Below, in pieces: positions 8,245-17,968 of a DNA stretch of 64,000 nucleotides (position 1 is the stretch's first letter; each line of letters starts with the position of its first letter). The stretch is taken from assembly GCF_017982655.1 (NCBI RefSeq), contig NZ_JABXYX010000007.1:1-64000 (forward strand). Reading direction: 5' to 3'. The translations under genes were made by a program, and so were the position numbers. The notes under the pieces are model-generated. The model was given only the letters and a program-made list of their open reading frames with translations. It did no database searches and had not been told where the DNA came from. The DNA comes from Brasilonema sp. CT11 (GTDB lineage Bacteria > Cyanobacteriota > Cyanobacteriia > Cyanobacteriales > Nostocaceae).

Positions 8245-8595
8245 TCAACCAGGGGGCCATGCCATCTGGCGTCCACCGAGAATATGCAGATGCAAGTGGT
8301 AAACAGTTTGACCCCCATCAGGACCTGTGTTGATGACAACGCGATAGCCATTTGTGAGTCCGGCTTGTTCGGCAACTCGCTTGGCTGTTAAAAGAAGATG
8401 CCCAAGGAGGGCATCGTCACCAGATTCGGCGTCAGCTAGTCTGGGTATAGGTTTTTTGGGAATGACGAGAATGTGAACCGGGGCTTGGGAATTGATGTCT
8501 CTAAATGCCAGCGCTAAGTCATCTTCGTAAACTATGTCAGCTGGAATTTCTCGACGAATGATTTTGCTGAAAATTGTTTGTGTGGTTTCACTCAT
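8245..8595 (-). CDS. HIT family hydrolase (HINT-like purine nucleoside phosphoramidase)
   Basis: This 116-aa protein has the histidine-triad signature HLHLHILGG near residue 100, where the middle His is the nucleophile that attacks the nucleotide alpha-phosphate. The N-terminal [20 protein letters not shown] and the [13 protein letters not shown] segment are typical of HINT proteins, as is the full length. It is cytoplasmic and hydrolyses AMP-lysine/phosphoramidate-type substrates in characterised relatives. The first 35 bp and its upstream region are duplicated at 17809-17968 next to comM, so this gene and comM were probably divergent neighbours before about 9 kb came to lie between them. 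Confidence 0.93.
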
Positions 8596-8722
8596 AATCG
8601 ATTTACCTGTTCATCTGTTAGAGATTCTATAGGTTTAGTGTTCTTGATGAAACATTCAGCACATGCTTGCTATAGTTGGGAGTGGATCAATTGTCCGGTA
8701 TTCACGCTGTCAAATTGGGTAA
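8561..8722. repeat. Left copy of ~160-bp direct repeat flanking the 8.7-17.8 kb block
   Basis: This stretch aligns with 17809-17968 with roughly 20 mismatches or small gaps, counted by eye. It contains the 5' end of the HIT gene, the old HIT-comM intergenic space and the first ~60 bp of comM. HIT is intact on this side and comM is a stub. The right copy is the mirror case. Confidence 0.85.
8663..8722 (+). pseudogene. comM 5' stub
   Basis: Reads MLAIVGSGSIVRYSRCQIG then stop. It matches the start of the intact ComM (MLARVWSGSIVGIDAVKVG) through SGSIV. A one-base insertion near 8696 then shifts the frame and a stop follows. It is a relic and should not be translated usefully, although it lies just upstream of the WD40 gene. 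Confidence 0.8.
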
Positions 8723-8787
8723 AGTCTTTATTCGATCGCAAACCCAAGTCAGTCAAAGTTAAGTTATCATAACTATATTTTTAATGC

Positions 8788-11700
8788 ATGACTTTACAAA
8801 ATTGGAAACGTAAGCGCGGCGTTGCACTGACTAATAAGGGTTTACAAAAACTTCAGGACGCAAAGCGTAAGTCAGAAACAAAGGAAAATTTTGGCAACAG
8901 CTACACTCTTGAAGAAATGAGCACACTTTCTGGGTTATATTCCAGTACAATCTCAAAAGTACTCAATCGGGAAGCAGGGGTTGATAAAAAAAGTATTGAA
9001 AAGCTTTTTTCAGTTTTTAGCGTAAAAATAGACAAAATTGACTATTTAAACTCAAAAAATCATCTAGATTGGGGTGATGCTACTTTTACATCAGTTTTTT
9101 ATGGACGTACAGAAGAGCTTACCACGCTACAGGAATGGATTCTTGATGAGCGCTGCCGATTGGTATCACTATTAGGAATGGGTGGTATTGGCAAAACTGC
9201 TCTGTCTGTCAAGCTTGCTCAACAGATTCAGCAAGACTTTGAGTATGTTATCTGGCGATCGTTACGAGAAGCCCCACCTATTAATACTATTGTTGCTAAC
9301 CTAATTCAAGTTCTATCTGATCAGCAGGAAACAGAAAATAACTTACCAGAAAATTTCAGTGAAAAAATATCCCGATTAGTCTATTATTTACAAAATAATC
9401 GCTGTTTGGTAATACTTGATAATGTAGAGTCAATTCTTCGCAGTGGCAGTCGAGCTGGACAATATCGAGAAGGATATGAAAGGTATGGTGAGCTTTTCAG
9501 ACAGCTAGGAGAAGCAAGCCACCAAAGCTGCTTAGTGCTGACGAGTCGGGAAATACCTAAAGAAGTGGCATTACTCAAAGGACAAAAATTACCCGTTCGC
9601 TGCCTACAATTAAGTGGTTTAAAGGTGGACGAAGGGCAGGAAATTTTGAAAATTAAGGGGCTATCTGCAGCAGAGCAAGAATGGAAAGCAATAATTAAAC
9701 TTTATACAGGCAATCCATTGGCTTTGAAGATAGTTGCTACGACAATTGTTGATGTCTTTGATGGTAATGTAACTGATTTTTTGCAACAGAATACAGGTGT
9801 TTTTGGCGATATTCGTGATATTCTAGACCAGCAGTTTGAGCGCTTGTCAGATTTAGAAAAAGAAATAATGTATTGGCTAGTGATAAATCGTGAGCCAGTT
9901 TCGCTATCACAATTGCGAGAAGACATTGTATTACCAATACCACCACAAAAATTACTGGAGGCTTTAGAATCTCTGGTCAGGCGATCGCTAATCGAGAAGG
10001 CTACGCTGCGGGAAGAGCTTCGCTCTACGCCTACACTAGTTGAGAAAAGTGCAGCAACTTTCACTCTACAACCTATCGTTATGGAGTATGTCACTCAGGT
10101 ATTGATAGAGTTGGTTTGTGGAGAGATTGAAACTCACAATATCGATTTGTTCAGGTGTCATGCTTTGATAAAGGCGACGGCGAAGGACTATGTGAGGGAA
10201 ACTCAAATTCGCCTTATCCTACAACCAGTTATAAACGGGCTGCTCACTGTTTTTAGAAGCAAAAAAAACCTTGTAAATCAGTTAACCCAAATTCTATCAA
10301 GACAGCGAGAAGAATCTCCGCTAGAACCAGGGTATACGGCTGGAAATGTTCTCAATTTGCTTTGTCATTTGGAAACTGATCTAAGTGGTTATGATTTTTC
10401 TTATTTAACTGTTTGGCAAGCAGACTTGCGGTGTATGAAATTGCACGATGTCAATTTCCAAAACGCCAATCTAGCTAAGTCTATTTTTGCAGAAACCTTC
10501 GGCGGTGTCCTGTCGGTCGCCTTTAGTCCTGATGGTAAACTTTTGGCTATGGGTGATACCAATGGAGAGATTCGCTTGTGGCAAGTTGCGGATGAGAAAC
10601 ACATCCTTACCTGCAAGGATCACACCAATTGGGTCGTATCACTCGCCTTCAGTTCTGATGGTAGTACCCTTGCTAGCAGTAGTACTGACCAAACAGTGAG
10701 GTTGTGGGATGTTAGTACAGGTCAATGCCTTCAAACTTTGCAGGGACATGATAATGTCTGGTCAGTTGCCTTTAGTCCTGATGGGAAGATGCTGGCAAGT
10801 GGCTGTAAGGATCAGACGGTTCGGCTTTGGAGTGTCAGCACAGGTGAATGCCTCAGAACTTTCCAGGGACATTCCAATTGGGTACTATCAATTGCCTTTA
10901 GTCCTGATGGTCACACGCTGGTGAGTAGCAGTGGAGACCACACCATCAGGTTGTGGGATGTTAATACAGGTGAATGCAAAAAAACTTTCCGGGGACATTG
11001 TGGTGGGGTACGGTCAATCTCCCTCAGTCCGGATGGTCAGACTCTGGCGAGTGGTAGTGAAGACCAAACGGTGAGGTTATGGGATGTTAGTACAGGTGAA
11101 TGCCTCAAAATTTTGCAAGGACATTCCAATCGCGTTATGTCGATTGCCTTCAGATCGCAAGGTGATATCCTAGCAAGTGGCAGTTTTGACCAGACGGTGA
11201 AGTTATGGGATGTTAGCACTGGTGAGTGCAAAAGAACTTTTCAGGGACATTCCAATTTTGTTTGGTCAATTGCCTTCAGAACGCAAGGTGATATCGTGGC
11301 AAGTGGTAGTTATGACCAGACGGTGAAGTTATGGGATGTTAGCACTAGTGAATGCAGAAGAACTTTTCAGGGATATTCCAACCAAGTAACATCAGTCGCC
11401 TTTAGCCCGGATAGCCAAATGCTGACAAGTGGCAGTGTAGATCACACAGTGAAGTTGTGGGATGTTAACACTGGTGAATGCAAAAAAACTTTCCGGGGAC
11501 ATTCTAATTGGGTATATTTAGTTGCCTTTAGCCCACAAGGTAATACCCTAGTCAGTTGTAGTGGAGACAAAACAGCGAAGCTATGGAGTGTCAGCACAGG
11601 TCTTGCCTTAAGAACTTTACACGGACATAGTGCTCGGATATGGTCAACGAGTTTCAGTCCTAACGGTCAGACGCTGGTGAGTGGCAGTGAAGACCAAACA

Positions 11701-16731: not shown

Positions 16732-17387
16732 TATTTCTATATTTTTATTAAGATGACTTAATAAATATTGGCAACCACAAACCATTTTTGCCAGCGAAAA
16801 TCTACATTTTGAGATTGAATTTAACTTATATGGCGCTTCTCGTTTGTAATGAAGTACAGATTTATTTGTGTAGCCAACAAAGTTGCTTACCTGAGTTATT
16901 TACGTATTTTTTTTACTCGAAATAAAACGCTTATCTACTCTGGTACTGAATTGTAGTTTTCCTGTGTTTGTATGAAACCACCCTGCTTTGCTAGGAAGGG
17001 ATACAAGTAAAGGAACAAGACAAATAGCACTCCATATTTTTCTTTAAAAAATAAGCACACAAAATGGCTAGATCTTTGAATACGCATGTTTTTTTATACT
17101 ATTTTTTAATTCACTACATATAAAAACTTCTTTGACTTGAAATTTATAATTTCAAGTCAAAGAAGGACAAGCAATCAGTTCCAGATATAGAGAACACAAG
17201 TATTAAATACTACATTCTAAGTTTTCATGCTGTGCCAAAAAACTTTACAGTTTTATTTAAGTTTATTCTTAACTTCCTGATTTTCACTTGCTTAAAGTTT
17301 GAAAAAATGCATTCTAAAGCTACTCCCTTCCCGCCCAAAAAATACCTAATTTAACGTTTGCCCAAGCCAAGTACCGCAGGCATACGC
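16732..17387. other. AT-rich intergenic region containing a long palindrome
   Basis: About 650 bp without a supported gene. The one clear structure is the 17-bp inverted repeat at 17128-17164. Otherwise it looks like decayed DNA between a small gene and the broken diiron-gene copy. Confidence 0.4.
17128..17164. repeat. 17-bp perfect palindrome with 3-nt loop
   Basis: TTCTTTGACTTGAAATT, loop TAT, then the exact complement. It stands alone in AT-rich DNA with no T-run and no adjacent gene end. Confidence 0.8.
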
Positions 17388-17800
17388 TCATGCTGATGCC
17401 CTATCTAAAAGCTTCTGGGTTTTCGCTACTGTGTCTGCATCTATCGTCTTTTGGGTGAAGGAATCCCCGCCTCCCGCAGGTTTGGGTTGATGCACCCAAG
17501 TACGGTTGCTAGTTTCCACCCCTACTTCACCAGGCTTAATACACCCCGATTCAGTATCAATGAAAAACTCATTATGCATGATTGGTTTTGCATTTCCATA
17601 TGTTCGATGAGCATCTTAACCAGCGCCTCTGCTAGCAAAAGATATGCAAATGGCTTGCTTTAAGATGGCTTTTTGGGTAAATTCAACTCCTCATGCCGTA
17701 TTCGCTTTTGGATGCTTCAATTTTGCATCCATAGCGAGCAAAGTCAATCCACAAATTAGATTATTCTCTAAATAAATAATAACAGAATAACAGCATCATT
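17388..17800 (-). pseudogene. Truncated second copy of the diiron-protein gene and its upstream region
   Basis: From 17579 down to 17388 the frame reads MHNEFFIDTESGCIKPGEVG and on to KTQKLLDRASA, then stop. It matches residues 1-62 of the 285-aa diiron protein with conserved changes. Homology continues through the upstream region to about 17800, directly abutting the right ~160-bp repeat. The catalytic helices are absent, so it is a non-functional relic of a duplication. Confidence 0.8.
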
Positions 17801-17843
17801 TGTGAAGGATTTTGCTAAAAATTGTCTCTGTGGTTTCACTCAT
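17796..17843 (-). pseudogene. HIT gene 5' stub
   Basis: Reads MSETTETIFSKILHK then stop. The first 12 residues match the intact HIT protein ([12 protein letters not shown]). This is the HIT half of the right direct repeat. Confidence 0.8.
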
Positions 17844-17968
17844 GCCGATTTACCTGTTGATCTGCTAGAGATTCTATAGGTTTAGTATTCTTGATCAAAT
17901 ATTCAGCACATGCTTGCCAGAGTTTGGAGTGGATCAATTGTCGGCATCGACGCTGTAAAAGTGGGCGT
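17809..17968. repeat. Right copy of ~160-bp direct repeat (HIT start, spacer, comM start)
   Basis: It aligns with 8561-8722. Here comM is intact and HIT is a stub. The spacing between the two start codons (66 bp) gives the likely original divergent arrangement. Confidence 0.85.

What the first reader, a model, noticed from the sequence alone, without database searches (positions are those of the whole stretch)
8561..17968. A ~9.2-kb block sits between a 160-bp duplication of the HIT-comM junction
The two copies at 8561-8722 and 17809-17968 each carry the HIT start, a short spacer and the comM start. HIT is intact only on the left and comM only on the right; each side has a stub of the other gene (MSETTETIFSKILHK-stop; MLAIVGSGSIVRYSRCQIG-stop). 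The simplest reading is that HIT and comM were divergent neighbours and that the block was inserted with a long target duplication, or that a tandem duplication was followed by loss and insertion. The stubs have diverged by about 20 changes, so the event is not recent. The block holds the WD40 STAND gene and the diiron/peptide/dioxygenase operon.
Basis: seen in the sequence. Interest (0 to 1): 0.78.

Follow-up and report, generated by a model that had tools for sequence, protein, structure and literature searches.

The report
Shared gene switch copied at insertions
Two neighbouring cyanobacterial genes appear to share one stretch of control DNA, and where extra genes have come between them or they have been moved apart, that stretch has usually been duplicated so that each gene keeps a copy.

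Summary
J1 (8556-8719) and J2 (17804-17965) are 87% identical copies of the divergent HIT-comM junction. Four genomes of the nearest other genera keep HIT and comM 66 bp apart. All seven held genomes of this genus (Brasilonema-like) carry J1, J2 or both. A tree puts one duplication in the genus stem.

The pattern reaches beyond the genus. On a quick 48-genome comM tree, adjacent versus separated needs at least 10 changes. Of 35 separated pairs that I picked, 26 keep the junction element upstream of comM and 32 upstream of HIT, some with the genes up to 3.3 Mb apart. In nine Nostoc-like genomes the old HIT codons upstream of comM stay conserved although the HIT start codon is lost in eight. I read the element as a control region that both genes need.

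Inserts carry varied accessory genes; 47 scanned ORF clusters include no integrase. One genome holds four junction copies in a row. The block itself is a turnover site.

Retention of the region is well supported. Promoter function is inferred. How the duplication arises is unknown.

The parts
8245..8595 (-). HIT-family gene, intact, 116 aa
   Evidence: Pfam HIT 3e-32
8556..8719 (+). J1, left copy of the HIT-comM junction
   Evidence: 87.2% to J2 over 164 columns
8624..8629 (-). Likely -10 hexamer TAGAAT of HIT in J1 (inferred; the promoter scan did not list it)
   Evidence: read from the sequence
8663..8722 (+). comM stub, 19 codons and stop
   Evidence: read from the sequence
8788..12348 (+). 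STAND NTPase with N-terminal extension, NB-ARC-like domain and WD40 repeats, 1186 aa
   Evidence: Pfam; follows J1 in five of five genomes with a left flank
12362..13162 (-). PhyH-family dioxygenase
   Evidence: Pfam PhyH 3.5e-29
13328..13510 (-). 60-aa peptide ORF, with relatives next to the diiron gene elsewhere
13607..14464 (-). Haem_oxygenas_2 (diiron-type) gene, 285 aa
   Evidence: Pfam 7e-7, just above its cut-off
14269..14674 (.). Reference copy of the nested duplication (5' part of the diiron gene and upstream DNA)
   Evidence: families D5, D6
15605..15757 (+). Small RHH-like ORF a (weak Pfam matches only)
16552..16785 (-). Small ORF b, inverted relative of a, no Pfam match
17384..17792 (.). 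Second copy of the nested duplication: decayed first diiron gene (stub 17388-17579, minus) and its upstream DNA
17796..17843 (-). HIT stub, 15 codons and stop
   Evidence: read from the sequence
17804..17965 (+). J2, right copy of the HIT-comM junction
17871..17898 (-). HIT-direction promoter-like site TTGATC-16-TAGAAT in J2
   Evidence: consensus scan, two found against 0.9 expected
17910..19442 (+). comM (YifB/ChlI-like ATPase), intact, 510 aa
   Evidence: Pfam Mg_chelatase 9e-96

Best explanation
J1 and J2 are two copies of one control region shared by HIT and comM. In this family the two genes start back to back, about 55-90 bp apart. The DNA conserved for comM reaches about 85 bp upstream, into the first ten or so HIT codons. 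The DNA conserved for HIT reaches about 33 bp upstream, to a likely -10 box. The two overlap by about 63 bp. Cargo can therefore come between the genes, or the genes can move apart, at little cost only if the overlap is duplicated so that each gene keeps one. In Brasilonema this happened once, in the genus stem, by a duplication of about 164 bp that also caught 13 HIT codons and about 19 comM codons. The space between became a turnover site: STAND-WD40 next to J1, and a small-ORF pair plus a diiron gene next to J2. In the window's own lineage (shared with G002) a PhyH-peptide-diiron module was added, and in the window the first diiron gene is a stub. Shown: the copies, their single origin in the genus, recurrence in other genera, and constraint on both sides. 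Inferred: that the constraint is promoter or operator function, and that selection is why both copies are kept. Unknown: the recombination step; I favour tandem or unequal duplication plus acquired DNA over a dedicated integrase.
For: Adjacent sites with one junction in the nearest other genera. Tree of 22 junction copies: J1 one clade (100/99), J2 one clade (88/75), both together apart from 11 empty sites (89/84). A PWM from 17 distinct empty sites finds the element upstream of comM in 26 of 35 separated pairs and upstream of HIT in 32 of 35, each above all 1,260 null windows. Nine Nostoc-like genomes with unlinked genes: mean pairwise identity on the comM side 0.76 and 0.86 at -85..-72 and -72..-55 (former HIT codons; start codon lost in 8 of 9), against 0.29 and 0.32 at -130..-90; on the HIT side 0.66 to +33, then 0.38 falling to 0.23. 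The length of the duplication differs by lineage. G240 (gap 335 bp) and, less clearly, G066 (gap 142 bp) hold both copies with little or no cargo. G132 holds four copies in one 8.2-kb block. None of 47 insert ORF clusters of 95 aa or more, one member of each scanned, matched a site-specific recombinase.
Against: In 9 of 35 separated pairs no element above the null lies upstream of comM (G026, G113, G115, G134, G208, G209, G067, G204, G161), and in 3 of 35 none upstream of HIT (G208, G209, G150), so the copy is not obligatory. By eye G134, G067 and G204 have degenerate versions on the comM side, and G150 has one on the HIT side with a missing base. The promoter scan found about as many sites as chance gives or one more, and no HIT-direction site at the matching place in J1. 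There are no expression data. The 35 pairs are my choice, not a random sample. Conservation alone fits other DNA functions. Support for J1 plus J2 as one clade is moderate. The second copy in G066 is weak (E 7e-4; not found by self-blast).
Confidence: 0.66

Rival explanations
1. The junction is the attachment site of a site-specific recombinase acting in trans. Cargo with a junction copy integrates at the HIT 5' end, and the flanking repeats are left and right attachment sites.
For: Direct repeats at both ends in 14 of 22 linked inserts. In several genera the left copy ends near +33 and is followed by a similar GGCGATCGCC-type sequence. Four copies in a row in G132, with newer cargo on the HIT side.
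Against: No recombinase among 47 scanned ORF clusters (ORFs under 95 aa were not scanned). Repeat length varies from 46 to 164 bp. The element stays conserved where the genes lie 0.45-3.3 Mb apart and there is no insert to excise.
Confidence: 0.17
2. Plain tandem duplication of the HIT-comM region followed by complementary loss of one HIT and one comM, with cargo arriving later and no special role for the junction. The stubs are just what has not yet decayed.
For: HIT and comM stubs lie in the order this predicts. comM fragments lie inside the blocks of G023, G208 and G209. Both copies with little cargo in G240 and G066.
Against: Chance leftovers would not keep 0.76-0.86 identity beside flanks at 0.29-0.32 in the nine g7 genomes. 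In the window no comM or HIT DNA beyond the repeat was found in the block. The duplication step of this rival may still be right; only its neutrality is disfavoured.
Confidence: 0.12
3. One ancient duplication in the family ancestor, with cargo exchange ever since, and empty sites made later by recombination between the repeats.
For: The empty junctions of G059 and G220 look like later collapses of occupied sites. About as many losses as gains could fit the tree.
Against: In Brasilonema J1 and J2 group with each other apart from the empty sites (89/84), which fits a separate, genus-level duplication. The outermost lineages on the comM tree are adjacent.
Confidence: 0.05

Closest known systems
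Accessory gene hotspots between conserved core genes, without a resident integrase (general kind, recalled)
   Same: Varied cargo, among it restriction-modification, Uma2 and STAND genes, between two fixed core genes, with turnover between relatives
   Different: Here the divergent control region of the core genes is itself duplicated, so that each keeps a copy
Tn6022 and Tsy elements that target comM through TnsF (PMC10293859, passages seen)
   Same: comM is a repeated insertion target
   Different: Those insert inside comM at the Walker B codons and carry transposition genes; here comM is intact, the insertion is upstream, and no such gene was found
Interruption elements of heterocyst-forming cyanobacteria (PMC4874684, passages seen)
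   Same: Cyanobacterial DNA bracketed by direct repeats
   Different: Those interrupt a coding gene and carry their own recombinase; neither holds here
Tandem duplications formed during transformation, merodiploids (PMC3784515, abstract and outline seen)
   Same: A route by which taken-up DNA and repeats give duplications
   Different: Those are about 100-900 kb; here the retained copies are 46-164 bp

Membership tests
Integrase-borne genomic island with attachment repeats | recombinase gene in the element | tested here: not met
   47 ORF clusters of 95 aa or more from 22 inserts, one member of each scanned: no site-specific recombinase; ORFs of 70-94 aa were listed but not scanned
Integrase-borne genomic island with attachment repeats | direct repeats of one defined length at both ends | tested here: not met
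   repeats in 14 of 22 linked inserts, with lengths from 46 to 164 bp
Tn7-like or Tsy element at comM | insertion at the Walker B codons of comM | tested here: not met
   comM intact, 510 aa, block upstream of its start
Heterocyst interruption element | splits a coding gene | tested here: not met
   HIT and comM both complete outside the block
Divergent gene pair with a shared control region | back-to-back genes with a short conserved spacer | tested here: met
   about 55-90 bp in the 20 empty-site genomes; the element is present by eye in 18 of them, absent in G200 and G017
Divergent gene pair with a shared control region | the same DNA is constrained for each gene separately | tested here: met
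   26 of 35 and 32 of 35 separated pairs; conservation profile in nine g7 genomes
Divergent gene pair with a shared control region | the DNA drives transcription in both directions | not testable with these tools
   only consensus scans, which are near chance level

The most novel reading that the evidence does not exclude
The HIT 5' end is a polar capture site. New cargo repeatedly enters next to HIT, each time with a fresh copy of the junction, so that older cargo and older junction copies are pushed towards comM, as in G132 with four copies. This would be a repeat-bounded gene array built at a core-gene promoter without a resident integrase, perhaps through transformation, beside a gene (comM) of the transformation machinery.
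Probability: 0.15. Interest if true: 0.75.

Novelty: new variant of a known kind. Interest (0 to 1): 0.52.

Why it matters
It suggests a simple rule for how a tightly packed divergent gene pair can be opened to new genes: copy the shared control region. Insertion sites at divergent promoters would then be partly predictable. The many natural splits also act as a dissection of the HIT and comM control DNA that can be tested in Nostoc. It warns against reading such repeats as ordinary attachment sites. And it gives a genus-wide, datable case of cargo turnover with a STAND gene fixed at one end.

Tried and rejected
One long target duplication by a transposon: rejected as the general account, because the lengths differ by lineage and no transposase is shared by the inserts. 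Only an IS605-type OrfB in G115 and a Tn5-like transposase in G067 were seen among the scanned ORFs.

RNA gene or tRNA as target: no Rfam match in 7000-20000 at gathering scores, and no tRNA in the window.

A regulon-wide motif: in the own genome the 19-base core has its two junction copies at one mismatch each and five other places at three mismatches. In 10 of the 24 genomes a weak 31-bp match lies elsewhere; I read the sequence at three of these places and listed ORFs at two, where it stands upstream of a 133-aa gene that I take, from recall, for FAS1-like. It resembles the HIT-side leader, not the whole element.

Defence annotation: only weak PADLOC matches (PDC-S27, E 1.5e-4 and 3.7e-4) to the STAND N-terminal part, none for the other four proteins sent. 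NCBIfam gave no match above its cut-offs.

Literature: eight paper searches listed no paper on the HIT-comM junction among the titles and abstract starts shown. Searches were spoiled because 'comM' also matched longer words. Of the papers I opened three: passages of PMC10293859 and PMC4874684, and abstract and outline of PMC3784515.

Choice of genomes: occupied and unlinked pairs were picked by me from the coordinates; the place lists were cut off, so 35 is not a random sample. Unlinked g7 genomes were chosen for few contigs. G161 was left out of the profile because it has no copy upstream of comM. In the tree some 'unlinked' labels come from draft contigs (G024, G029, G030, G032) and could in part be contig breaks; G005 and G006 were labelled occupied from J2 alone. 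G200 and G017 were left out of the PWM because they lack the element by eye.
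Full report
What is there. J1 and J2 are two copies of the divergent junction between a HIT-family gene and comM. They align over 164 columns at 87.2% identity and are the only two matches in the genome at E <= 0.001. J1 holds the first 13 codons of the intact HIT gene, the spacer and a 19-codon comM stub. J2 holds a HIT stub (15 codons to its stop, 13 of them in the repeat), the spacer and the start of the intact comM.

Relatives. 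Seven genomes of the genus are held, the window's own included. G000, G001, G003 and G004 have both copies. G002 has J1 and its contig ends inside the block; comM was not found in it. G005 and G006 have J2 only and no HIT was found in either; G005's contig ends, and in G006 unrelated genes lie upstream of the block. By equal contig lengths, G001, G002 and G003 are Scytonema tolypothrichoides VB-61278, Brasilonema angustatum HA4187-MV1 and Brasilonema bromeliae SPC951, so the window comes from a Brasilonema-like cyanobacterium. In the nearest other genera (G011, G119, G120, G111) HIT and comM are 66 bp apart with one junction.

Date. In a tree of 22 junction copies the five J1 copies form one clade (100/99), the six J2 copies another (88/75), and both together stand apart from the 11 empty sites (89/84). 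Mean identities are 0.92 among J1, 0.94 among J2, 0.87 between J1 and J2, 0.87 from J1 and 0.91 from J2 to the four nearest empty sites. So the duplication most likely happened once, before the sampled species split and after the split from G011's genus.

The block as a turnover site. STAND-WD40 follows J1 in all five genomes with a left flank (G000-G004). Two small inverted, RHH-like ORFs are present in G000, G001, G003, G004 and G006, and one of them in G005 at a contig end. An intact diiron gene stands next to J2 in G001 and G006, and a fragment in G004. In the window a stub stands there, and a PhyH-peptide-diiron module, shared with G002, lies further left; G003 has a diiron gene with a peptide relative, left of the small ORFs. 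The diiron gene is patchy: 68 of 217 family genomes, at many other loci, some copies with stops. Small-ORF-pair plus diiron, and diiron-peptide-PhyH, recur at other places in L118 and L112.

Beyond the genus. From coordinates I took 22 linked but separated pairs (0.8-15 kb; the window and loci) and 13 pairs that are far apart on one contig (0.45-3.3 Mb, ten genomes) or on different contigs (three genomes) (and loci). blastn finds a direct repeat of the junction in 14 of the 22; G082's is weak (46 bp, 74%, E 7e-4). A PWM from 17 distinct empty sites, scored against 1,260 windows from insert interiors, finds the element upstream of comM in 26 of 35 (14 of 22 linked, 12 of 13 others) and upstream of HIT in 32 of 35. 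The misses are G026, G113, G115, G134, G208, G209, G067, G204 and G161 on the comM side, and G208, G209 and G150 on the HIT side. G132's comM-side copy passes only narrowly because of a one-base gap. In a DNA search of 217 genomes, 51 of 53 g7 genomes gave two or more matches, but some second matches may be a weak 31-bp one elsewhere. G064 has the genes about 50 kb apart, with a copy at each.

Constraint. In nine g7 genomes with the genes unlinked, the comM side is conserved from about -85 to the ATG (0.76, 0.86, 0.78, 0.91, 0.92) and at background beyond (0.32 and 0.29). The former HIT start codon is lost in 8 of 9, so this DNA no longer codes for HIT. The HIT side is conserved to +33 (0.66, lowered by small indels in some rows) and then drops from 0.38 to 0.23. 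The hexamer at +28..+33 reads TAGAAT or TAAAAT towards HIT. A consensus scan lists TTGATC-16-TAGAAT there in J2, but not in J1, and such scans find about one site by chance. I read this as a control region that both genes need, overlapping by about 63 bp.

Unusual forms. G132 has four copies: at HIT, at +5722, at +7325 and at comM; the two inner ones are partial. The DNA right of the third copy, with its Uma2 gene, matches what lies right of G130's left junction (94.8% over 640 bp), so newer cargo seems to have entered on the HIT side and pushed the older junction inward. G240 has both copies with a gap of 335 bp. G066 has a gap of 142 bp and a weaker second copy, which self-blast did not report. 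G023, G208 and G209 hold comM fragments inside the block.

Mechanism. Adjacent versus separated needs at least 10 changes on a quick comM tree of 48 genomes, a few of whose labels rest on draft contigs. No site-specific recombinase was found in 47 ORF clusters of 95 aa or more, one member of each scanned (STAND, PhyH and the diiron gene); two inserts hold IS-type transposases. I conclude that duplication of the shared region is what makes separation tolerable and that selection keeps both copies. How the duplication forms is open: tandem duplication with acquired DNA is favoured over an integrase. Natural transformation as the route is inference; that comM aids recombination of transformed DNA is stated in PMC10293859 (passages), and that transformation can produce tandem duplications in PMC3784515 (abstract).

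Verdict. I file it as a new variant of a known kind: an accessory gene hotspot whose core-gene control region is, in most of the examined cases, present on both sides.

Noticed in passing
comM in other genomes (G033, G041): comM is split at about residue 304-310 by about 41-42 kb in G033 and G041, the parts overlapping by about 7 residues; several other genomes give two or three comM matches whose positions I did not all see. The place is near the Walker B target described for Tn6022 and Tsy (PMC10293859, passages). In G011 an intact comM is followed about 14 kb on by a spare 3' part; two of the three ORFs of 120 aa or more between them are RPE65-like and RTX-like, and the third resembles the STAND gene.
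   Followed up: partly
L108 (G059) against L089 (G060); L107 (G220) against L069 (G023): Empty sites in sister genomes look like later collapses: G059's junction resembles the left copy near HIT and the right copy near comM; G220's resembles the left copy of G023 only (by eye).
   Followed up: partly
L255, L256, L257: A 31-bp relative of the HIT-side leader lies upstream of a 133-aa gene that looks FAS1-like (recalled, not searched), suggesting a shared promoter and leader type.
   Followed up: partly
G005 and G006: No HIT gene was found in two genomes of this genus (96% and 99% complete); in G006 unrelated genes lie upstream of the block.
   Followed up: partly
window 15605-15757 and 16552-16785: Two small RHH-like ORFs are inverted relatives of each other and travel with the diiron gene, also in another genus (L118).
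   Followed up: partly
window 13328-13510: A 60-aa peptide ORF between the diiron and dioxygenase genes has relatives beside the diiron gene in other genera (L112-L114, L116, L117, L120), as a modified-peptide cluster would.
   Followed up: no
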